DNA of 64,000 nucleotides from the NCBI GenBank assembly GCA_035516965.1, contig DATIZR010000043.1:1-64000 (forward strand), given 5' to 3'. The DNA is from Nitrospirota bacterium (lineage in GTDB: Bacteria > Nitrospirota > UBA9217). The notes below the pieces were generated by a model. That model made no database searches, was not told where the DNA came from, and saw only the letters and a program-made list of their open reading frames with translations. Below, piece by piece: positions 2,877 through 36,140 of this stretch (position 1 is its first letter; every line of letters starts with the position of its first letter). The position numbers were made by a program, and so were the translations under genes.

Positions 2877-2888
2877 GGGATCATAAAA

Positions 2889-2978
2889 ACCTGGGGGAGC
2901 CGAATGGCTGAGAGTCCTGAAGGGACGACCCTTAGAACCTGATCCGGATAGTGCCGGCGTAGGGAAGGCAAGGAAAGC
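2889..2978 (+). promoter_or_regulatory. TPP (THI-box) riboswitch aptamer
   Basis: The aptamer has the classical THI-box parts in order: GGGG near 2892, CTGAGA at 2909-2914, the ACCCTTAGAACCTGATC segment around 2928-2944, and the closing GCCGGCGTAGGGAA around 2953-2966. It lies between a sigma-70 promoter and an intrinsic terminator and directly precedes thiS, so TPP should switch off the operon by transcription termination. Confidence 0.95.
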
Positions 2979-2998
2979 ATCTCAGCAGCACATGCAAG

Positions 2999-3083: not shown

Positions 3084-3350
3084 ATGCATATTGTTCTGAA
3101 TGGAGAAAAAAGGGAAGTCCCCGACGAACTGACGGTCGGCTCCCTGCTCGCACATCTGAATATCCAGCCGCAGCGCGTGGCCGTTGAGCTGAACGAGATG
3201 ATTGTCAGGAAAGAACGCTATGAACAGTCCGTTGTCAGGGACGGCGATTCTCTAGAAGTCGTCAGCTTCATGGGCGGCGGAGGTTTTTCAGCAATGGTTG
3301 TCCGTACCGGTCCCTTTCGGGGAACGTTTAATAAGAAGATAGAGAAGTAA
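3084..3350 (+). CDS. thiS: Sulfur carrier protein ThiS with C-terminal tail
   Basis: ThiS carries sulfur as a C-terminal thiocarboxylate for the thiazole ring of thiamin. Residues 1-67 form a normal ThiS beta-grasp ending SFMGGGG (64-67), where the family normally stops. Here the frame continues for 21 residues ([14 protein letters not shown]..., 67/68-88) before TAA at 3348-3350. Neither shifted frame stops near the GG, so one frameshift would not restore a normal end. A protease would have to expose the GG before adenylation, unless another ThiS exists. It is followed 16 bases later by thiG. Confidence 0.9.
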
Positions 3351-3366: not shown

Positions 3367-4146
3367 ATGAACGATGTGCTTGTCATAGCGGGAATCCAGT
3401 TTCACTCACGCCTCTGGGTTGGGACCGGGAAGTACAGGGATTTTGCGGAGACGAAGAAGGCGATCGAGATTTCCGGGACGGACGTGGTCACGGTCTCGGT
3501 CCGGCGCGTGAACATCATCGACAAGAGCAAGGAGAACCTGCTCGACTACATCGACCCGACAAAGTACAAGATCCTGCCGAACACGGCCGGTTGTTACACG
3601 TCCAAGGACGCGATCCGGACAGCGCTGCTCGCTGCCGAGGCGGGGATCACCAAGCTCGTCAAGCTCGAGGTGATCGGCGATGCGAAGACACTGTTCCCGG
3701 ACAATGAGGCGACGCTCGAAGCGGCGAAGGTCCTGGTCAAGGAGGGGCTGATCGTGCTGCCCTATACCAGTGATGATCCGATCATGGCAAAGAAGCTCGT
3801 CGATATCGGCTGTCCGGCGATCATGCCGCTCGCCGCGCCGATCGGCTCCGGTCTCGGCATCAGGAACCCTTACAATATCCGGATCATCATGGAGACCGTG
3901 AAGGTTCCCATCATTGTCGACGCCGGCGTCGGAACGGCTTCGGACGTTGCGCTCGCCATGGAGCTGGGGTGCGACGCGGTGCTTCTGAACACGGCCATAG
4001 CCGGGGCCCAGGACCCGATTGCCATGGCTGAGGCCATGAAGTATGGCGTCCTCGCCGGCCGTCTCGCGTATAAAGCGGGACGAATACCGAAAAAGCTCTA
4101 TGCCACGGCCAGCAGTCCGCTGGAAGGAGTGATCGGGAGCTCATGA
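3367..4146 (+). CDS. thiG: Thiazole synthase
   Basis: ThiG condenses deoxyxylulose 5-phosphate, dehydroglycine and ThiS-thiocarboxylate sulfur to make the thiazole phosphate. The 259-residue protein is a TIM barrel with the imine-forming lysine in [10 protein letters not shown] (about K99), an early [10 protein letters not shown] segment, and the phosphate-binding [10 protein letters not shown] and [10 protein letters not shown] loops. Length is normal. It sits directly after thiS and before thiE. No thiH or thiO is visible, so the source of dehydroglycine is not in this window. Confidence 0.96.
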
Positions 4147-4920: not shown

Positions 4921-6240
4921 ATGACGCAGATTCTTGAAGCAAGGAAAGGCAATATCACACCCGAGATGGAAGCTGTGGCCCGGGCTGAAGGAGTCGGCAT
5001 TGACCATATCATCGATGGAGTGGCCCGGGGCACGATCGTCATTACCAGAAACAAGACGCATGCGTCAATAAGCCCGCTCGGCATCGGAAAGGGACTTCGG
5101 ACCAAGATCAACGCGAACATCGGGACCTCGAAGGACCGGATGTCTATTGAAGGCGAGCTCGAAAAGCTGAAAGTTGCCGTAGTCGCTGGCGCTGATGCGG
5201 TCATGGACCTGTCGACCGGCGGACCTATTGTCGGGATACGCAGGGAGATCCTGAAGCACTCCACTGTCTCCATCGGCACCGTGCCGATCTATCAGGCTGC
5301 GGTCGAGACCGTTGAACAGGGGAAACCGATAGTCCAGATGGACCCCGACCTCCTGTTCCGGGTGATCGAGCAGCAGGCAGAGGAAGGCGTGGATTTTGTG
5401 ACCGTGCACTGCGGCGTCACCACCTCGAGCTTGGAGCGGCTCAAGAAACAGGGCAGGATCATGGACGTCGTCAGCCGGGGGGGCGCTTTCCACATAGAAT
5501 GGATCATCTATAATGGGATGGAGAACCCGCTGTTCACGCAGTACGACCGGCTGATCGAGATTGCCAAGAAATATGACGTCACCCTTTCGCTCGGCGACGG
5601 CATGCGGCCGGGGTGTCTTGCCGATGCCACGGACCGTGCCCAGATCGAAGAGCTGATCACGCTGGGAGAACTGCGCGACGTCGCCCATGAAGGAGGGGTG
5701 CAGGTGATGATCGAAGGACCGGGCCACGTGCCGATCAACCAGGTCGAGACGAACATGAAGATCCAGAAGGAACTCTGCAAGGGAGCGCCGTTCTATGTGC
5801 TCGGGCCGCTCGTGACCGACGTGGCTCCCGGCTATGATCATATAACTTCCGCCATCGGCGGCGCCATTGCGGGGGCCGCCGGTGCCGACTTCCTCTGCTA
5901 TGTAACGCCGTCCGAGCATCTTCGTTTGCCGGACCTTGATGACGTGCGCGAGGGAGTCATCGCCTCCCGCATCGCGGCCCACGCAGCCGATATCGCAAAA
6001 GGTGTAAAGGGCGCAATGGACTGGGACAAGGAAATGGCACGGCGTCGCAAGGCGCTTGACTGGAAAGGTCAGATCGAGCTGTCGATGAATCCCGAACGCG
6101 CGCGAAAATTGCGCGAATCGAGCATGCCGAAGGAATCGGACGTCTGCACCATGTGCGGCGAGTTCTGCTCCATGAAGGGCATGTCGCAGTACCTGAAGAA
6201 GGAAGACCGTAGCCGGAAAGCAGAAGTAACAAAACCATAG
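4921..6240 (+). CDS. thiC: Phosphomethylpyrimidine synthase (short form)
   Basis: ThiC is a radical-SAM enzyme that rearranges aminoimidazole ribotide into HMP phosphate. The 439-residue protein is the short form without the N-terminal domain of the 600-residue enterobacterial enzyme. Core motifs include MDLSTGGPI, SLGDGMRPG, EGPGHVP and the zinc-site region. The C-terminal cluster motif reads CTMCGEFC with Cys at about 409, 412 and 416, which is CX2CX3C. A good ribosome site (GAGGTG) lies seven bases before the ATG at 4921. Confidence 0.96.
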   Translation: MTQILEARKGNITPEMEAVARAEGVGIDHIIDGVARGTIVITRNKTHASISPLGIGKGLRTKINANIGTSKDRMSIEGELEKLKVAVVAGADAVMDLSTGGPIVGIRREILKHSTVSIGTVPIYQAAVETVEQGKPIVQMDPDLLFRVIEQQAEEGVDFVTVHCGVTTSSLERLKKQGRIMDVVSRGGAFHIEWIIYNGMENPLFTQYDRLIEIAKKYDVTLSLGDGMRPGCLADATDRAQIEELITLGELRDVAHEGGVQVMIEGPGHVPINQVETNMKIQKELCKGAPFYVLGPLVTDVAPGYDHITSAIGGAIAGAAGADFLCYVTPSEHLRLPDLDDVREGVIASRIAAHAADIAKGVKGAMDWDKEMARRRKALDWKGQIELSMNPERARKLRESSMPKESDVCTMCGEFCSMKGMSQYLKKEDRSRKAEVTKP

Positions 6241-27992: not shown

Positions 27993-29309
27993 ATGTCATC
28001 CAAGAAATCAATCAATGTGGGCATTATTGGCTTTGGCACGGTCGGGACGGGAACGGCGCGCATCCTGATCGAGAACGCTGAAGTCATCAAGAAGAGGCTT
28101 GGCGCTCCGGTCGTCCTGAAGAAGATATCGGACCTCGACATCAAGCGCGACCGCGGTATCAGGCTTGGTGAGGTGAAGCTCACGACCAGTGCGCAGGAGA
28201 TCGTAAGTGATCCTGACATCGATATCGTGGTGGAGCTCATCGGAGGGTATAAGCCTGCGAGGGAGTTCATGCTCGAGGCGATCAGGAACAAAAAACATGT
28301 GGTGACCGCGAACAAGGCGCTGCTCGCCGTGCACGGTGAAGAGATCTATGCTGCCGCAGAGAAGTCCGGAGTCACCCTGGGATTCGAAGCGTCCGTCGCA
28401 GGCGGCATCCCGATCCTCGCCGCCATCAGGAACGGCCTTGCGGCGAACAACCTAAGGTCCATTTACGGCATTGTGAACGGTACCTGCAATTACATCCTGA
28501 CGCTCATGACGAACGAAGGCAGGAAGTTCGAGGAGGTCCTGAAGGAGGCCCAGTCCATGGGCTATGCCGAGGCGGACCCGACCTTCGACATCGAGGGGAT
28601 CGATTCGGCGCACAAACTTGCCGTCCTGACCATGCTTGCCTATGGCACACCGGTGAAGTTCGAGGACATCTATACCGAGGGCATATCCAAGATCACGCCA
28701 CTGGACATCGATTTCGCGAAGGAACTGGGGTGCAAGATCAAACTGCTGGCGATCACGAAAATGGTGAACGGTGAAGTGGAGGCGAGGGTGCATCCGACCA
28801 TGCTGCCCGAGTCCTATCCGATCGCGACGGTGGACGGAGTGTTCAACGCGCTTTCGGTCGTTGGCGACGCCGTTGGCTCCACCATGTTCTACGGAAGGGG
28901 GGCCGGCGACATGCCGACGGGAAGCGCCGTGGTGAGCGATATCATCGATATCGGTCGGGACATCCTCGCCGGCTGCGTAAACAGGTCCCCGGTCGCGGCC
29001 TTCCGGGACCGCGCACCGCTCAGGATCAGAAAGATGGAGGACATCACGTCCTGTTACTATCTCCGCTTTTCGGCCATGGACAGGCCGGGCGTTCTTTCGC
29101 GGATCTCCGGAGTGCTCGGCAGGAACAATATCAGCATCTCGTCCGTGATCCAGAAGGGGCGGGGCGCTGCCGCGGCAGTGCCGCTGGTCATGATGAGCCA
29201 TGAGGCGGTCGAGCGTGATGTGCGGAAAGCGCTTGATGAGATCAATACCATGGATTGTGTGGCCGGTCCGACCCTTGTCATCAGGGTCGAAGAAAGCAGC
29301 CAGGGGTAG
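27993..29309 (+). CDS. hom: Homoserine dehydrogenase
   Basis: Hom reduces aspartate semialdehyde to homoserine, the branch point to threonine and methionine. The 438-residue protein has the Rossmann motif VGIIGFGTVGTG (9-20), the VVTANKALLA segment, GTCNYIL, the catalytic-region AEADPTFDIEGIDSAHK, and a C-terminal ACT domain (about 350-425, YYLRFSAMDRPGVLSRISGVLG), which usually gives feedback control by threonine. It heads the sulfur-relay genes tusA-thiF-JAMM-ubiquitin-like-NIL and then an ApgM-like gene and lysC. Confidence 0.96.
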   Translation: MSSKKSINVGIIGFGTVGTGTARILIENAEVIKKRLGAPVVLKKISDLDIKRDRGIRLGEVKLTTSAQEIVSDPDIDIVVELIGGYKPAREFMLEAIRNKKHVVTANKALLAVHGEEIYAAAEKSGVTLGFEASVAGGIPILAAIRNGLAANNLRSIYGIVNGTCNYILTLMTNEGRKFEEVLKEAQSMGYAEADPTFDIEGIDSAHKLAVLTMLAYGTPVKFEDIYTEGISKITPLDIDFAKELGCKIKLLAITKMVNGEVEARVHPTMLPESYPIATVDGVFNALSVVGDAVGSTMFYGRGAGDMPTGSAVVSDIIDIGRDILAGCVNRSPVAAFRDRAPLRIRKMEDITSCYYLRFSAMDRPGVLSRISGVLGRNNISISSVIQKGRGAAAAVPLVMMSHEAVERDVRKALDEINTMDCVAGPTLVIRVEESSQG

Positions 29310-29409
29310 ACGAAAAGTTCGATTTTCAACATGCTATGGTCGAAATGTCGTAACTGCCTTATAGTCATTATTTTAATATTTTGCTGGGTAAGGTACCCGG
29401 GAGTTTGTC

Positions 29410-29670
29410 ATGGCCGAAGAATTCAAGCCAGATAAGATCCTCGATATCAAGGGCCAGGTCTGCCCCTATACGTTTGTGCGTTCCAAGCTGACCATTGAAA
29501 AAATGAACCTTGGCGAGGTGCTCGAGATCGTCACCGACCACAAACCTGCATCCGAAAACGTACCGAAGAGCATGGAGAACGAGGGACAGAAGGTTCTGAA
29601 GGTCGATCAGACTGCGGAAAAAGAGTGGCATATCTTTGTTCGAAAAGAGAAAGAGAAGAAAAAAGGATAA
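29410..29670 (+). CDS. TusA/SirA-family sulfur-transfer protein
   Basis: The 86-residue protein has the TusA signature DIKGQVCPYTFVRSKL with the sulfur-carrying Cys at 18, followed by a short beta-alpha region and a Lys/Glu-rich end. TusA proteins pass persulfide sulfur between partners. Position between hom and the E1-like, JAMM and sulfur-carrier genes suggests it feeds sulfur into the same relay, possibly as donor for thiocarboxylate formation. Confidence 0.88.
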   Translation: MAEEFKPDKILDIKGQVCPYTFVRSKLTIEKMNLGEVLEIVTDHKPASENVPKSMENEGQKVLKVDQTAEKEWHIFVRKEKEKKKG

Positions 29671-29785
29671 GTGTAACCACCGATGAAAACGGATTAACAC
29701 CGAGGGAAGTCGCTTCGATTTATTGTTCCTGTGTTTCTCCGCGTGCCCCGACAACATCGGGACCAGTGGATACAAGGTGATCATC

Positions 29786-30589
29786 ATGGAATTTACGGAA
29801 GACCAGATACTGAGGTACAGCAGGCATATCCTGCTTCCCGAAGTGGGGGGCGACGGCCAGGAACGGATATTGAACGCCAAGGTCGTGCTTGTCGGCGCAG
29901 GAGGACTCGGCTCCCCGGTCGGATACTATCTTGCCGCTGCCGGCGTGGGCACCATCGGCGTGATCGACAACGATCGTGTCGAAATATCGAATCTCCAGCG
30001 CCAGATCGCTCATAATACGGGCAGGATCGGCGTGCTGAAGGCCGATTCGGCCAAGGAGACCTACGAGACGCTGAACCACGACGTTAACGTCGTGACCCAC
30101 AAGGAGCGGCTCACGTCTGCGAACATCAAGAACATCATTAAGGACTACGACATCGTTGTGGATGGGAGCGATAACTTCCCGACGCGGTATCTCGTGAACG
30201 ATGCCTGCGTCATGCTCAAGAAAACGCTGGTGAGCGCGGCCGTCTTCCGGTTCGAGGGGCAGGTGATGACCATCGTGCCGGGGGAAGGCCCCTGCTACCG
30301 CTGCCTCTTCGAGGTCCCGCCGCCGCCGGGCATGGTCCCGTCGTGCCAGGAAGCCGGCATCCTCGGTGTCGTGACCGGTGTGATCGGCACGATCCAGGCG
30401 ACCGAGGTCATCAAGGCTATCCTGGGAATAGGTCACGCGCTCAAGGGCAGACTCCTGCTGTGGAACGCTCTGGACATGCACTTCCGCACTGTCAAGGTCC
30501 CGCGAAACCGGGAATGCCCTGTTTGCGGAGAGCATCCGACGATAACCGAACTGATCGATTACGAGCAGTTCTGCTCCATGCACCATTGA
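29786..30589 (+). CDS. E1-like adenylyltransferase (ThiF/MoeB/HesA family)
   Basis: The enzyme adenylates the C-terminal glycine of a ubiquitin-like sulfur carrier. The 267-residue protein has the nucleotide-binding GAGGLGS (37-43), DNDRVEISNLQRQ, DGSDNFPTRYLVND, a possible catalytic Cys 187 in VPSCQEAGILG, and two zinc CxxC pairs (C170/C173 in CYRC, C244/C247 in CPVC). AAGGTG precedes ATG 29786. A JAMM peptidase gene 72 bases downstream and a sulfur carrier after that point to carrier activation for homocysteine or cysteine synthesis rather than molybdopterin. It may also serve ThiS, since the thi operon has no thiF. Confidence 0.9.
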   Translation: MEFTEDQILRYSRHILLPEVGGDGQERILNAKVVLVGAGGLGSPVGYYLAAAGVGTIGVIDNDRVEISNLQRQIAHNTGRIGVLKADSAKETYETLNHDVNVVTHKERLTSANIKNIIKDYDIVVDGSDNFPTRYLVNDACVMLKKTLVSAAVFRFEGQVMTIVPGEGPCYRCLFEVPPPPGMVPSCQEAGILGVVTGVIGTIQATEVIKAILGIGHALKGRLLLWNALDMHFRTVKVPRNRECPVCGEHPTITELIDYEQFCSMHH

Positions 30590-30661
30590 GATGACGGAGA
30601 GCGGAATGCAGGGGCAGCCCTTGTTGTGCTGCCCGGTTCGATTTTGGAATGCGTGGGCCTT

Positions 30662-31084
30662 ATGCTGAAAATAAATAAAAGCGACCTTCAGGTCATCGTG
30701 GAACACTGCCTTGCCGGCTACCCGAACGAAGCCTGCGGCATGTTGGGTGGCAGGAATGGAAGCGTGGAGAAGGTATATCCCATGAGGAACGCAAAGCCGG
30801 GTCCCGATTACTACGAAATGGACCCCGAGGAGCAGTTCCGCGTGATGAAGAACATCAGGGACAGCGGCCTCGAGATGATCGGCCTGTTCCATTCCCATCC
30901 AACCGGTCAGGCATATCCTTCCTCTGTTGATGTGGAGCAGGCCTACTGGCCCGGAACGCAGCTCCCGAACTACCCCGACGCGATCTACGTCATTCTGTCC
31001 CTGATGGACCGCTCCAAACCGGTGGCACGGGGTTTTTCCATAGAAGAAGGCAAGGTAGCAGAAGTAACGGTGACGGTGCTGTAA
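30662..31084 (+). CDS. JAMM/Mov34 (M67) metallopeptidase, Mec+/HcyD type
   Basis: The 140-residue protein is a minimal JAB1/MPN peptidase with all zinc-site residues: Glu 23 in PNEACG, H77 and H79 in HSHP, then S87 and D90, matching HxHx7Sx2D. Relatives clip residues from the C-terminus of ubiquitin-like sulfur carriers: Mec+ removes cysteine from CysO, QbsD and HcyD remove tails to expose GG. The adjacent carrier ends GGK and ThiS at 3084 ends far past its GG, so this enzyme has two obvious possible substrates. ATG 30662 fits the family start. Confidence 0.9.
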
Positions 31085-31151
31085 CCGGGAGAACGTCATC
31101 GTCCTCGGAAAGGACGGTGACAGGAGTTTCATCATCCAGGAGGAGGAATGC

Positions 31152-31427
31152 ATGGCTATTAAGGTTAGGATCCCGACGCCGTTGCAGAAGATCACGAACG
31201 GCAAGGCCGAAGTGGAATGCAGTGCGAAGAACATTGCGGAACTCGTGGACGCTCTCGAAAGGGACTACCCGGGAATGAAGGAGCGGCTGTCCGAGGGCGG
31301 AAAGATACGGCGGTTCATCAACATCTATGTGAATGAAGAGGACATCCGTTTTGTGAACAGGGAGGAGACCGCCCTCAAGGACGGAGACGACATATCGATC
31401 GTACCGGCCATAGCGGGAGGGAAGTAA
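31152..31427 (+). CDS. ThiS/MoaD-like ubiquitin-like sulfur carrier ending GGK
   Basis: The 91-residue beta-grasp protein starts [15 protein letters not shown] and ends [15 protein letters not shown]. Length and the SIVPAIAGG end match the CysO/HcyS group better than MoaD. The last residue is lysine after the GG pair, so one residue must be removed before thiocarboxylation. GGAGGAGG just upstream of ATG 31152 gives a strong ribosome site. It follows the JAMM gene by 67 bases and precedes the NIL gene. Confidence 0.9.
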
Positions 31428-31531
31428 CGACCGGCCTTCCTGGCGGGAAGCATCGAGGATTCGTGAGATCGCCGCTTCTCTGCCTCATCCCATTCGCAAG
31501 TATTCGATTGCTGCCGGTCAAGGAGAAGAGG

Positions 31532-31774
31532 ATGGCTACAAAGAGAGTCAAATTGACATTTCCTCAGGACCTGATCAAGGAGCCGGTGATCTTCACCATG
31601 GCCAGAAAATTCGACATCATGCCGAATATCAGGCGCGCCAAGGTAACCGAGTCGGTTGGTGAAGTGGTGCTGGAGCTTGAGGGCACGGAAAAGAAACTCG
31701 AGGAAGGGATTGCGTACCTGAAGGAGCGGGGCGTAGCTGTCGAAACCACGGAAGGGGACGTCCCAGGCGCGTGA
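31532..31774 (+). CDS. Stand-alone NIL-domain protein
   Basis: The 80-residue protein is almost only a NIL domain: ATKRVKLTFPQDLIKEPVI, DIMPNIRRAKV, GEVVLELEG, then a helix LEEGIAYLKERGVAVE. The NIL fold is an ACT-like ferredoxin fold also found at the C-terminus of methionine ABC-transporter ATPases and fused to ferredoxins in anaerobic homocysteine synthesis. No cysteines are present here, so there is no iron-sulfur cluster. AAGGAG at 31520-31525 supports ATG 31532. Context suggests methionine or homocysteine sensing or synthesis. Confidence 0.85.
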   Translation: MATKRVKLTFPQDLIKEPVIFTMARKFDIMPNIRRAKVTESVGEVVLELEGTEKKLEEGIAYLKERGVAVETTEGDVPGA

Positions 31775-31888
31775 TGATTCCCTTTTTTTGCCAGGGTTCC
31801 GCGCCGGATACCACACCAGCGGTCGGAGCGGACGGAACTGCCCGGTCTGCGATGTATCGATGCTGGGCGTCAGGGCGATAGTTCTTCT

Positions 31889-33112
31889 ATGAAATATATT
31901 ATTCTGCTTGGCGATGGAATGGCCGACCGGCCGCACGCGATGCTGGGGGGGAAAACCTGTCTGGAGGCGGCGAAGACGCCCAATCTCGATCAGCTTGCGA
32001 CGGCGGGCCAGGTGGGGATGGTCCACACGGTGCCTGAAGGATTCCCCCCGGGGAGCGATGTGGCAAACCTAACCGTCATGGGCTATGATCCCCGGAAGTA
32101 CTATACCGGCCGTTCACCCCTGGAAGCGGCAAGCATCGGGGTTGAGTTGGCTCCCGATGATGTCGCCTTCCGCTGCAATCTGGTTACGCTCCGCATCACC
32201 GGCGGCATGACCGCCGGCGGCGGGCGCCGCGCCGTCATGGAGGATTTCAGCGCGGGCCACATCAGCAGCCAGGAGGCGCGCGTTCTGATCGAGGAGATCG
32301 ACGGCAGGCTGGGCACGGACCGCATCCGTTTTTACCCGGGAGTGAGTTATCGTCATCTCATGGTCTGGAAGGGAGGCAATGACGGGACCGAGTGCACGCC
32401 TCCCCACGACATCCAGGACAAGGAAATTCAGGACTATCTGGCCCGCGGTGAGGGCAAGGAGACGATCAACGGGCTCATGGAGGCATCCGTGGACCTGCTC
32501 ACGTCCCATCCCGTGAACAGGAAAAGGCTGGAGAACGGCAAACGTGCTGCGAACAGCATCTGGCTCTGGGGCCAGGGGCGAAGGCCGAGCATGCCGACCT
32601 TCCGGGAGAAGTATGGACTGGAAGGGGCGATGATCTCGGCGGTCGACCTTACCAAAGGGATCGGCATTTACGCGGGTTTTGAAGTGATCGATGTCCCCGG
32701 CGCAACGGGCTGGATCGATACGAACTATGTCGGCAAAGCAGAGCACGCGCTCTGGGCGCTCAAGGCCAGGGATATCGTCTACGTCCACGTCGAGGCTCCC
32801 GATGAAGCGGGGCACACGGGCGACCTCAAGAACAAGATGAAGGCAATCGAGGACTTCGATGAATTCATCGTAGGAAACATCATGCACGGCATGAAGCAGT
32901 TTGACGAGTACCGGATCCTGGTTCTTCCGGACCATCCGACTCCGCTCGAGCTCAGGACCCATTCAAGCGAGCCGGTCCCCTTCGTTCTGTTCGACAACAG
33001 GCAGGAGCGAACCGGGGATCCGGTACACTACGACGAACGGATCGCGCTGCGGAAGGACGCGCTCGTCTTCAAAGAAGGGTACCAGCTGATGGATTATTTT
33101 TTGAAGAAATGA
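31889..33112 (+). CDS. ApgM-like phosphatase-superfamily protein; proposed homoserine kinase
   Basis: The 407-residue protein has the alkaline-phosphatase-superfamily start IILLGDGMADRP and later LPDHPTPLELRTHSSEPVPF metal motifs. The family contains cofactor-independent phosphoglycerate mutase of the archaeal ApgM type and a related group proposed to be an alternative homoserine kinase because it sits with threonine genes in species lacking ThrB. Here hom lies upstream and lysC downstream, with no thrB visible, which favours the homoserine-kinase idea. Sequence alone does not separate the two. Confidence 0.85.
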   Translation: MKYIILLGDGMADRPHAMLGGKTCLEAAKTPNLDQLATAGQVGMVHTVPEGFPPGSDVANLTVMGYDPRKYYTGRSPLEAASIGVELAPDDVAFRCNLVTLRITGGMTAGGGRRAVMEDFSAGHISSQEARVLIEEIDGRLGTDRIRFYPGVSYRHLMVWKGGNDGTECTPPHDIQDKEIQDYLARGEGKETINGLMEASVDLLTSHPVNRKRLENGKRAANSIWLWGQGRRPSMPTFREKYGLEGAMISAVDLTKGIGIYAGFEVIDVPGATGWIDTNYVGKAEHALWALKARDIVYVHVEAPDEAGHTGDLKNKMKAIEDFDEFIVGNIMHGMKQFDEYRILVLPDHPTPLELRTHSSEPVPFVLFDNRQERTGDPVHYDERIALRKDALVFKEGYQLMDYFLKK

Positions 33113-33249
33113 AGCATAAATAAATTGAGCCGCGGAGGACAGATCGGTCTCAAAAAATATTCAGGGTTCAAAATTCCAAATTTCGATATTTATTTTATTC
33201 TCTGTGCTCTCTGTGGCGACGATTATTACCAGAACAACGGAGGAGAAGG

Positions 33250-34467
33250 GTGCTCATAGTTCAGAAATACGGCGGTACGTCCGTTGGGAATCCCGAACGT
33301 ATCAGGAACGTGGCGAGACGGGTTGTACGGACCAAAGAGGAGGGTCATGACGTCGTGGTGGTCGTATCTGCCATGAGCGGGGAAACGGACAAGCTTATCA
33401 ACCTGGCCAACCAGGTGAGCGAGAATCCCGATCCCCGGGAAATGGACATGCTCGTATCCACAGGGGAGCGGGTCACCATCGCGCTGCTCGCCATGGCGAT
33501 CCAGTCTCTCGGGCACAAGGCGCAGTCCTTCACGGGCCGGCAGGCCGGGATCATCTCGGACAGCGTCCATACCCGGGCTCGCATTGAGAAAATCACCGGA
33601 GAACGGCTGCGGTGTGCCGTCAGGGAAGGCAAGATCGCCGTGGTTGCGGGCTTTCAGGGCATCACGGAAAAGGATGATGTCAGCACGCTCGGCCGCGGGG
33701 GGTCGGACCTCTCTGCCGTGGCCGTTGCCGCGGCGCTGAAGGCAGACGTCTGCGATATCTACACCGACGTTGACGGCGTCTATACGACGGACCCCAACAT
33801 GGTCCCGCAGGCGCGAAAGCTCGACAAGATATCCTATGACGAGATGCTCGAACTGGCGAGCCTCGGGGCCAAAGTGCTCCAGACCCGGTCCGTCGAGTTC
33901 GCGAAAAAATACAATGTACCGGTGCGGGTGCTCTCGAGCTTCAACGACAACCCGGGTACCCTGGTGACCAAGGAGGATGCAGATATGGAGAAGGTGGTCG
34001 TGTCCGGCGTGGCATATGACAAGAATCAGGTGAAGGTGACGGTCCAGGGTGTGCCGGACAAGCCGGGCGTTGCAGCGAATATCTTCAATACCATTTCGGA
34101 CAACAACGTGGTGGTTGATATGATCATTCAGAACATCGGCGAGGGCGGCCTCACGGACATGTCATTCACGGTGCCGAGGACCGATGCCAAGAAGATTCTG
34201 GAGGTCATGAAGAAGGTCGTGGCCGAGATCGGCGCGAAAAATGTGAACATCAAGGAAGATATTGCCAAGATATCGATCGTCGGCGTGGGCATGCGCTCTC
34301 ACTCCGGTGTGGCGGCGAAGATGTTCTCGGCAATGGCCAAGGAAGGCATCAACATCATGATGATCAGCACGTCGGAGATCAAGATTTCCTGCGTGATCGA
34401 TGCGAAGTATACGGAGCTTGCCGTCCGGGTGCTGCACGACGCTTTTGAGATGGACAAAGCTGCGTGA
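33250..34467 (+). CDS. lysC: Aspartokinase
   Basis: Aspartokinase makes aspartyl phosphate, the first step to lysine, threonine and methionine. The 405-residue protein has [13 protein letters not shown] (5-17), [31 protein letters not shown], and two C-terminal ACT domains (about 265-400) that normally bind lysine and threonine for feedback inhibition. The start is GTG 33250, with GGAGG six bases upstream. The 137-base spacer before it is AT-rich and carries a short CTCTGTGCTCTCTGTGG repeat; no lysine riboswitch is visible. Confidence 0.95.
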
Positions 34468-34547
34468 TGATGCCGTGAGGAGCCAGGAGGGGACGCTCCT
34501 CCGAATGCCGGGGTTTGAACTTTACCCTCACTCTCTATCGGAATTCT

Positions 34548-36140
34548 ATGAAGCCCAAAGTGCAACTATACGACACCACGCTCCGCGACGGTGCTCAGGC
34601 CGAGGATGTGAATTTTTCGGTCGAGGACAAGATCCGTGTTGCGCGCAAGCTCGACCAGTTCGGCGTCCACTATATCGAGGGAGGCTGGCCTGGCTCGAAC
34701 CCCCGCGACGTGGAGTTCTTCAAGGAGATGGGGCGTGTCAGGCTCAGGAAGGCGAAGCTCTCCGCGTTCGGGTCGACCCGCCGCGCCCGGCTCAAGGCCG
34801 CCGCTGACCCCAGCATGCGCGCGCTGGTCTCCGCAGGTGCGCCGGTCGCAACGATCTTCGGCAAGACCTGGGACCTGCACGTTCTGAAAGCGCTCGGGAC
34901 CAGTCTGAACGAGAACCTCGACATGATCGAGGACTCCGTAGCGTTCCTGAAGAAACACCTTGATGAGGTGGTCTACGACGCCGAACACTTCTTCGACGGA
35001 TATAAGGCAAACCCCGAGTATGCCGTCCAGACGCTACTCGCCGCGGAGGGAGCGGGCGCCGACTGCCTCGTCCTGTGCGACACGAACGGCGGTACGCTGC
35101 CCCACGAAGTCGAAGAGATCATCGCCCGGGTGAAAAGGACGATCGCGACGCCCTTCGGAATCCATGCGCACAACGATGCCGAACTCGCCGTGGCGAACTC
35201 ACTGACGGCGATACGGATGGGCGCGGTCCAGGTGCACGGCACGATGAACGGCTATGGTGAGCGGTGCGGAAACGCCAATCTCTGCTCCCTCATCCCGACG
35301 CTTAAACTGAAGCTCGGGATCGAATGCGTCCCGGACGCCAGCCTGTCCCGTTTGCGCGACGTGTCGCGTTATGTGGATGAGCTGGCGAACCTGCCGCATC
35401 GCAAGCGCCAGCCCTACGTCGGCGACAGCGCATTTGCCCACAAGGGCGGAGTGCACGTCGATGCCATGGCAAAGAGTTCGCTGACCTATGAACATATCAA
35501 GCCGGAGCTGGTGGGGAACCGGCGGCGCATCCTGGTCTCCGATATGGCGGGCAGGAGCAACATCCTTCAGAAGGCGGCGGAACTCGGCATCAGGCTTACC
35601 CGGGACAGCCCCGAGCTCGGAACGATCCTCAAAAAGGTCAAGGAACTCGAGAACGAGGGGTATGAATTCGAGGGTGCGGAAGGATCGCTCGAGCTCCTGA
35701 TGCTGCGCGCGGGTCACAGCTATGAGTCCGTCTTCTCCATGTTCGATCGCATCGACTACCGCATCCTGACGGAGAAGCGCAAGGTCGATCCCAATGCGGT
35801 CAGCGAAGCGACCGTTACGGTGGAGGTGGGGGGCAATATCGAGCACACGGCCGCTTGGGGGAACGGGCCGGTGAATGCACTGGACAAGGCGCTTCGCAAG
35901 GTGCTGCCGAAGTACTTCCCGGGCAAGGGACTGGAGAGCGTACGGCTCATCGACTACAAGGTGCGCGTCCTGACCGCCGCCGCGGGGACGGCCGCGCGGG
36001 TCCGCGTCCTGATCGAATCCGGAGACGGCAGGAACAAGTGGGGCACCGTCGGCGTATCGGAGAACGTGATCGAGGCGAGCTGGCAGGCGCTCGTGGACAG
36101 CATTGAATTCAAACTGCTCCGGGCGAAGAAAAAGCCGTGA
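34548..36140 (+). CDS. cimA: (R)-citramalate synthase
   Basis: CimA condenses pyruvate and acetyl-CoA to citramalate, giving a threonine-independent route to isoleucine. The 530-residue protein has the HMGL-like start LYDTTLRDGAQAEDVNFS, GIHAHNDAELAVANSLTAI, GTMNGYGERCGNANL and FAHKGGVHVDA, and a C-terminal LeuA-type regulatory domain (about 400-520). Length fits the citramalate synthase family better than homocitrate or isopropylmalate synthase. It follows lysC by 80 bases, completing a block for aspartate-family and branched-chain precursors. Confidence 0.92.
   Translation: MKPKVQLYDTTLRDGAQAEDVNFSVEDKIRVARKLDQFGVHYIEGGWPGSNPRDVEFFKEMGRVRLRKAKLSAFGSTRRARLKAAADPSMRALVSAGAPVATIFGKTWDLHVLKALGTSLNENLDMIEDSVAFLKKHLDEVVYDAEHFFDGYKANPEYAVQTLLAAEGAGADCLVLCDTNGGTLPHEVEEIIARVKRTIATPFGIHAHNDAELAVANSLTAIRMGAVQVHGTMNGYGERCGNANLCSLIPTLKLKLGIECVPDASLSRLRDVSRYVDELANLPHRKRQPYVGDSAFAHKGGVHVDAMAKSSLTYEHIKPELVGNRRRILVSDMAGRSNILQKAAELGIRLTRDSPELGTILKKVKELENEGYEFEGAEGSLELLMLRAGHSYESVFSMFDRIDYRILTEKRKVDPNAVSEATVTVEVGGNIEHTAAWGNGPVNALDKALRKVLPKYFPGKGLESVRLIDYKVRVLTAAAGTAARVRVLIESGDGRNKWGTVGVSENVIEASWQALVDSIEFKLLRAKKKP

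What the first reader, a model, noticed from the sequence alone, without database searches (positions are those of the whole stretch)
3273..3347. ThiS carries a 21-residue tail after its GG motif
ThiS normally ends in Gly-Gly, which is adenylated and thiocarboxylated. Here GGGG is followed by [10 protein letters not shown] and more before the stop. Neither shifted frame gives a normal end near the motif, so a simple sequencing slip does not explain it. ThiS would be inactive until trimmed. The genome has a JAMM peptidase at 30662 that could do this, which would tie thiamin synthesis to the sulfur-relay cluster.
Basis: partly seen in the sequence, partly recalled or inferred. Interest (0 to 1): 0.62.

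Follow-up and report, generated by a model that had tools for sequence, protein, structure and literature searches.

The report
ThiS precursor with unconserved C-terminal tail
The small sulfur-carrying protein that helps make vitamin B1 in this bacterium is encoded with about twenty extra amino acids that must come off before it can work; many of its relatives carry similar but unrelated tails, so it is probably made as a precursor and trimmed, most likely by a metal protease encoded nearby.

Summary
The genome's only thiamin-type thiS (3084-3350, in a TPP-riboswitch-led operon with thiG) ends FMGGGG plus 21 residues before the stop. It is neither a one-off nor a sequencing slip. In a Nitrospirota sample, 51 of 83 ThiS carry extra residues after GGG (mostly 1-23). 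The longer tails rarely align and stop position shifts within genera, while the core up to GGG is conserved. The other two ThiS-family proteins of this genome also lack a free Gly-Gly end: the carrier beside the JAMM gene ends AGGK, with variable caps in relatives, and MoaD is fused to MoaE. Best reading: this lineage makes its sulfur carriers as precursors and trims them to -GG. The JAMM peptidase at 30662-31084 (motif intact) is the leading candidate, by analogy with QbsD/QbsE, PtmS1 and Deinococcus JAMM/MoaD-MoaE. Co-occurrence does not prove it: tails are commoner in JAMM-positive genomes (44/62 vs 7/21), but not significantly once stratified by family, nor across phyla, and some near-complete JAMM-less genomes carry tails. 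'Capped carrier plus JAMM' is known; a thiamin ThiS with long drifting caps, in a genome where no carrier has a free GG end, is a new variant.

The parts
2883..2982 (+). TPP riboswitch (RF00059) leading the thiamin operon
   Evidence: Rfam gathering hit, 74.4 bits, E 2.1e-14
3084..3281 (+). thiS core, beta-grasp domain up to the conserved GGG (residues 1-66)
   Evidence: TIGR01683 equivalog, Pfam ThiS; pLDDT above 90 over residues 1-60
3282..3347 (+). fourth Gly plus 21-residue unconserved tail [21 protein letters not shown]
   Evidence: translation; outside both family models; low confidence, pLDDT about 59 falling to 42; tails of relatives mostly do not align
3367..4146 (+). thiG, thiazole synthase, partner of ThiS
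   Evidence: Pfam ThiG, 365.5 bits
4214..4849 (+). thiE-like gene, thiamin operon
   Evidence: ORF; identity from reading the sequence, not searched
4921..6240 (+). thiC-like gene, thiamin operon
   Evidence: ORF; identity from reading the sequence, not searched
29410..29670 (+). TusA-like sulfurtransferase in the sulfur-relay cluster
   Evidence: Pfam TusA, 71.1 bits
29780..30589 (+). E1-like adenylyltransferase (MoeB/ThiF family)
   Evidence: Pfam ThiF, 283.4 bits; MoeB subfamily NF004281 above cut-off; one of two full-length E1 homologues in the genome
30662..31084 (+). JAMM/MPN+ metallopeptidase, proposed trimming enzyme
   Evidence: Pfam Prok-JAB, 78.1 bits; motif NEACG ... [14 protein letters not shown]; nearest solved chains 2kks and JAMM1 5lda/5ld9
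31152..31427 (+). second sulfur carrier (MoaD_arch/SAMP-like, HcyS-like by context), ends AGGK
   Evidence: Pfam ThiS, TIGR01687; caps in relatives vary
31463..31774 (+). NIL-domain protein of the cluster
   Evidence: Pfam NIL, 66.5 bits

Best explanation
ThiS is translated as a precursor. A peptidase cuts after the conserved Gly-Gly, most likely the JAMM metallopeptidase at 30662-31084, and exposes the C-terminal glycine. An E1-like enzyme then adenylates it, sulfur is loaded as a thiocarboxylate, and ThiG uses it. Because the tail is discarded, selection does not fix where the stop codon lies, so tails in this lineage drift in length and sequence. The same genome caps its JAMM-adjacent carrier (GGK) and fuses MoaD to MoaE, so one peptidase could mature all three. 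Shown: the tail, its recurrence and lack of conservation in relatives, the absence of any free-GG carrier in the assembly, and the intact JAMM gene. Inferred: that trimming happens, and that this JAMM does it.
For: No carrier of the genome ends in GG. The core is intact under an equivalog model and the operon has a TPP riboswitch. In the window's own family 10 of 13 relatives have tails of 2-23 residues, and 10 of 20 genera with two or more sampled members differ in tail length. JAMM-adjacent carriers in family f1 carry variable caps (K, R, C, CR, CGLS, RLKNEVERLGT and longer) in all 8 relatives read plus the window. MoaD-MoaE is fused in at least nine family f1 genomes. JAMM is present in 273 of 296 genomes of the phylum. 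Pooled, JAMM-positive 44/62 tailed vs JAMM-negative 7/21. Precedents: JAB cleavage of fused ThiS/MoaD proposed in PMC1779556; Deinococcus JAMM cuts MoaD-MoaE to a C-terminal Gly, PMC8832034; capped carriers with JAMM PtmS1 needed for thioplatensimycin, citing QbsD, PMC6006322.
Against: The family-stratified association is not significant (CMH odds ratio 2.5, chi-square 0.26), and in a 79-genome multi-phylum set there is none (15/60 vs 4/19, p = 1). Near-complete genomes with no JAMM beyond RadC still have tailed ThiS: G182 (12 residues), G178 (AA), G359 (9). One JAMM-less genome carries a ThiS-ThiG fusion (G304). The JAMM gene is not adjacent to thiS. Many JAMM-positive Acidobacteria keep an exact GGG end.
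Confidence: 0.6

Rival explanations
1. ThiS is trimmed to -GG, but by another peptidase (a general carboxypeptidase or housekeeping protease chewing a disordered tail back to the beta-grasp core); the JAMM serves only its adjacent carrier and/or MoaD-MoaE.
For: Tailed ThiS in near-complete JAMM-less genomes G182, G178, G359, G029 and in L203 and L239; the tail is predicted with low confidence; the JAMM gene lies 27 kb from thiS.
Against: A non-specific peptidase must stop exactly at GG; pooled tail frequency is higher with JAMM; reported uncapping of sulfur carriers uses JAMM proteins.
Confidence: 0.25
2. The tail is functional: a regulatory or partner-binding extension kept on the protein, controlling when ThiS becomes active.
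For: The tail is long in some genomes; Nitrospira-family genomes (f9) keep a consistent short 1-3 residue cap (SF, SL, SSY, AE, AR, C).
Against: Longer tails do not align between relatives apart from one pair sharing a spacer-like repeat, lengths differ within genera, and the tail is predicted with low confidence.
Confidence: 0.05
3. thiS is decaying or inactive and the thiazole sulfur comes by another route.
For: As encoded, ThiS cannot be adenylated at a terminal Gly; no second thiS was found.
Against: Invariant core residues kept, TPP riboswitch and thiG intact; dozens of relatives share the state.
Confidence: 0.07
4. Assembly or sequencing error hides a normal stop after GGG.
For: The genome is a 120-contig assembly whose reads were not seen; no second genome of the species was compared.
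Against: No shifted frame ends near the motif; independent genomes show the same kind of tail.
Confidence: 0.03

Closest known systems
QbsE/QbsD, thioquinolobactin pathway of Pseudomonas fluorescens
   Same: Sulfur carrier with residues after GG that a JAMM peptidase removes before thiocarboxylation (QbsD role cited in PMC6006322)
   Different: Two-residue cap (recalled), siderophore pathway, protease and carrier in one cluster; here a thiamin ThiS with a 21-residue unconserved tail 27 kb from the JAMM
PtmS1 with PtmS2/PtmS3, Streptomyces (PMC6006322)
   Same: One JAMM thought to serve several capped carriers in one genome (cap MV or C)
   Different: That genome also has free-GG carriers; here none of the three carriers has a free GG end
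HcyS/HcyD of Wolinella succinogenes (own knowledge; gene neighbourhood row 4e in PMC1779556)
   Same: Carrier, JAMM, E1 and TusA/SirA cluster with a residue after GG; resembles the 29.4-31.8 kb cluster of the window
   Different: Homocysteine pathway, not thiamin ThiS; not compared by sequence here
Deinococcus JAMM DR0402 and MoaD-MoaE fusion (PMC8832034)
   Same: JAMM cuts a fused carrier and leaves a C-terminal Gly
   Different: Molybdopterin synthase, not ThiS; but this genome also has a MoaD-MoaE fusion
ThiS-ThiG fusions (PMC1779556)
   Same: ThiS with sequence beyond GG; JAB cleavage was suggested for such fusions in 2006
   Different: The added part is a conserved enzyme domain, not a drifting tail

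Membership tests
ThiS, thiamin sulfur carrier | Beta-grasp domain matching TIGR01683/PF02597 | tested here: met
   77.8 bits vs cut-off 37.45, and 57 vs 22.5
ThiS, thiamin sulfur carrier | Next to thiG under TPP control | tested here: met
   thiG at 3367, TPP riboswitch at 2883
ThiS, thiamin sulfur carrier | Encoded C-terminus is Gly-Gly | tested here: not met
   GG present internally, 21 residues follow; mature end unknown
ThiS, thiamin sulfur carrier | Adenylation and thiocarboxylation of the terminal Gly | not testable with these tools
   needs protein
Capped sulfur carrier matured by JAMM | Residues after GG | tested here: met
Capped sulfur carrier matured by JAMM | JAMM peptidase with E, HxH and S..D motif in the genome | tested here: met
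   window 30662-31084
Capped sulfur carrier matured by JAMM | JAMM gene clustered with the capped carrier | tested here: not met
   not for thiS (27 kb away); met for the AGGK carrier at 31152
Capped sulfur carrier matured by JAMM | Cap occurs only where a JAMM is present | tested here: inconclusive
   pooled 44/62 vs 7/21, p 0.004; stratified and cross-phylum not significant; exceptions G182, G178, G359
Capped sulfur carrier matured by JAMM | Cleavage after GG shown | not testable with these tools
   needs an enzyme assay

The most novel reading that the evidence does not exclude
In this lineage every beta-grasp sulfur carrier (thiamin, molybdopterin, and the JAMM-cluster carrier) is made without a free Gly-Gly end and one JAMM peptidase matures all of them, acting as a single gate on three sulfur pathways; freed from selection on the stop codon, ThiS tails drift neutrally.
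Probability: 0.4. Interest if true: 0.6.

Novelty: new variant of a known kind. Interest (0 to 1): 0.42.

Why it matters
If true, it extends JAMM uncapping from siderophore, homocysteine and molybdopterin carriers to the thiamin carrier. It would show that ubiquitin-like precursors with disposable tails, as known for ubiquitin and SUMO, are routine in a bacterial phylum. It also warns annotators that ThiS stop codons in such genomes do not mark the mature end. One mass spectrum or one JAMM knockout can test it.

Tried and rejected
Sequencing slip: both shifted frames stay open 15 and 19 codons, and relatives have tails. A second normal thiS: none found. Tail DNA as a repeat or mobile element: no other copy in the genome. 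JAMM co-occurrence as proof: not significant within families or across phyla. Weak JAMM hits in G029, G295, G359, G275, G101 and G122 proved to be RadC; G314 has a different, divergent MPN-like hit. GC3 of tail (0.48) vs core (0.63): too short to lean on. HcyS/HcyD papers are not in the library.

Full report
Observation. The ORF 3084-3350 (+) encodes 88 residues ending [27 protein letters not shown]. The NCBIfam thiS equivalog model ends at residue 66, the third Gly, with a score well above its cut-off; Pfam agrees. The gene follows a TPP riboswitch (2883-2982) and precedes thiG, with thiE- and thiC-like ORFs after it. A predicted structure gives a confident core (pLDDT above 90 over residues 1-60) and a low-confidence tail (ten-residue blocks of 59, 59 and 42). 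Both shifted frames stay open for 15 and 19 codons.

Is there another thiS? The assembly (97.7% complete) has three ThiS-family proteins: this one; the carrier at 31152-31427, which ends AGGK; and a MoaD-MoaE fusion on contig 49 (SGG, then MoaE). None ends in GG.

Is the tail unusual? Within the window's family (f1), ThiS of 13 other genomes ends after the Gly run with 23, 18, 9, 9, 12, 3, 0, 2, 0, 0, 2, 2 and 2 further residues. The same-genus relative carries a 23-residue tail (EISSECGVRSADFKAKKRSQNHE). Across the Nitrospirota sample, 51 of 83 thiamin-type ThiS carry at least one extra residue; one of these is an in-frame thiS-thiG fusion. Lengths differ in 10 of 20 genera with two or more sampled members. 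In pairwise local alignments the six longest f1 tails mostly scored no better than shuffles; one pair (G005 and G001) did, both looking like spacer repeats (SIADFGLRIAD, CGVRSADF). The core, by contrast, has invariant residues including GGG. This fits a stop codon that is free to drift because the extension is discarded.

Taxonomy. In a multi-phylum set of 80 loci most ThiS, including most Acidobacteria, end exactly at GGG, so the trait is lineage-biased.

Other carriers. The JAMM-adjacent carrier in f1 relatives ends AGG plus R, R, C, CR, CGLS, RLKNEVERLGT, a GYNRRVRR tail or a tail of more than 20 residues; the window's has K. MoaD is fused to MoaE in at least nine f1 genomes; G002 is an exception, with a solo MoaD ending SGG. 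Precursor forms are therefore general in this family, not only for ThiS.

The JAMM. 30662-31084 is a Prok-JAB protein (78.1 bits) with NEACG and [14 protein letters not shown] intact. Its nearest solved relatives are 2kks (uncharacterised) and JAMM1 5lda/5ld9. It lies with TusA, an E1 and a NIL protein, resembling the 'ThiS/MoaD-like, JAB, E1, SirA' neighbourhood type 4e of Iyer et al. 2006. The genome has two full-length E1-like proteins and a second, divergent JAMM-like protein on contig 1.

Does JAMM do it? At E 1e-10, 273 of 296 Nitrospirota genomes have a JAMM. JAMM-positive genomes have tails in 44 of 62, JAMM-negative in 7 of 21 (Fisher p 0.004, uncorrected for kinship). Stratified by family the difference is not significant (CMH odds ratio 2.5), and in a 79-genome multi-phylum set there is none. 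Family f4, in which no JAMM was found, keeps an exact GGG end in all four ThiS read, as expected. But G182 (12 residues, listed 100% complete), G178 (AA) and G359 (9) have tails with at most RadC-type hits. Either assemblies miss genes or another peptidase can trim. Trimming is therefore a strong inference; the JAMM as its agent is a good but unproven one.

Known kind. Iyer et al. 2006 (PMC1779556) suggested that JAB could free ThiS or MoaD from fusions. A Deinococcus JAMM cuts MoaD-MoaE (PMC8832034). Capped carriers and the JAMM PtmS1 serve thioplatensimycin, with QbsD cited as the model (PMC6006322). HcyS/HcyD is a related case from my own knowledge. I found no paper in the library on a capped thiamin ThiS, within the limits of that library.

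Verdict. It is best seen as a new variant of the known capped-carrier system. The striking point is that no sulfur carrier found in this genome has a ready-made Gly-Gly end.

Noticed in passing
window 31152-31427; L143, L144, L148, L149, L150, L152, L153, L070: The carrier beside the JAMM ends AGG plus a variable cap in all 9 family f1 genomes read (K, R, C, CR, CGLS, RLKNEVERLGT and longer).
   Followed up: partly
G000 contig 49, 29107-29703 (L146 4099-4770): MoaD-MoaE fusion; fused in most family f1 genomes, solo MoaD ending SGG in G002, solo MoaD with residues after GG (SEGC or SCATWAREGV) in G029, G140 and G359.
   Followed up: partly
L033, L111, L141, L340: ThiS-like domain fused to a cysteine-synthase-like protein right after FMGGG, in family f2 and in G325.
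   Followed up: no
L211, L232, L303, L338: In-frame ThiS-ThiG fusions, one of them in a genome with no JAMM found (G304).
   Followed up: no
L145 1446-1874: Second, divergent JAMM-like protein (HSHVVSEAFPGSSD) elsewhere in the window's genome.
   Followed up: no
window 27993-36140: Sulfur-relay cluster flanked by homoserine-dehydrogenase- and aspartokinase-like genes, suggesting a homocysteine or methionine role for the AGGK carrier (functions read from sequence only).
   Followed up: no
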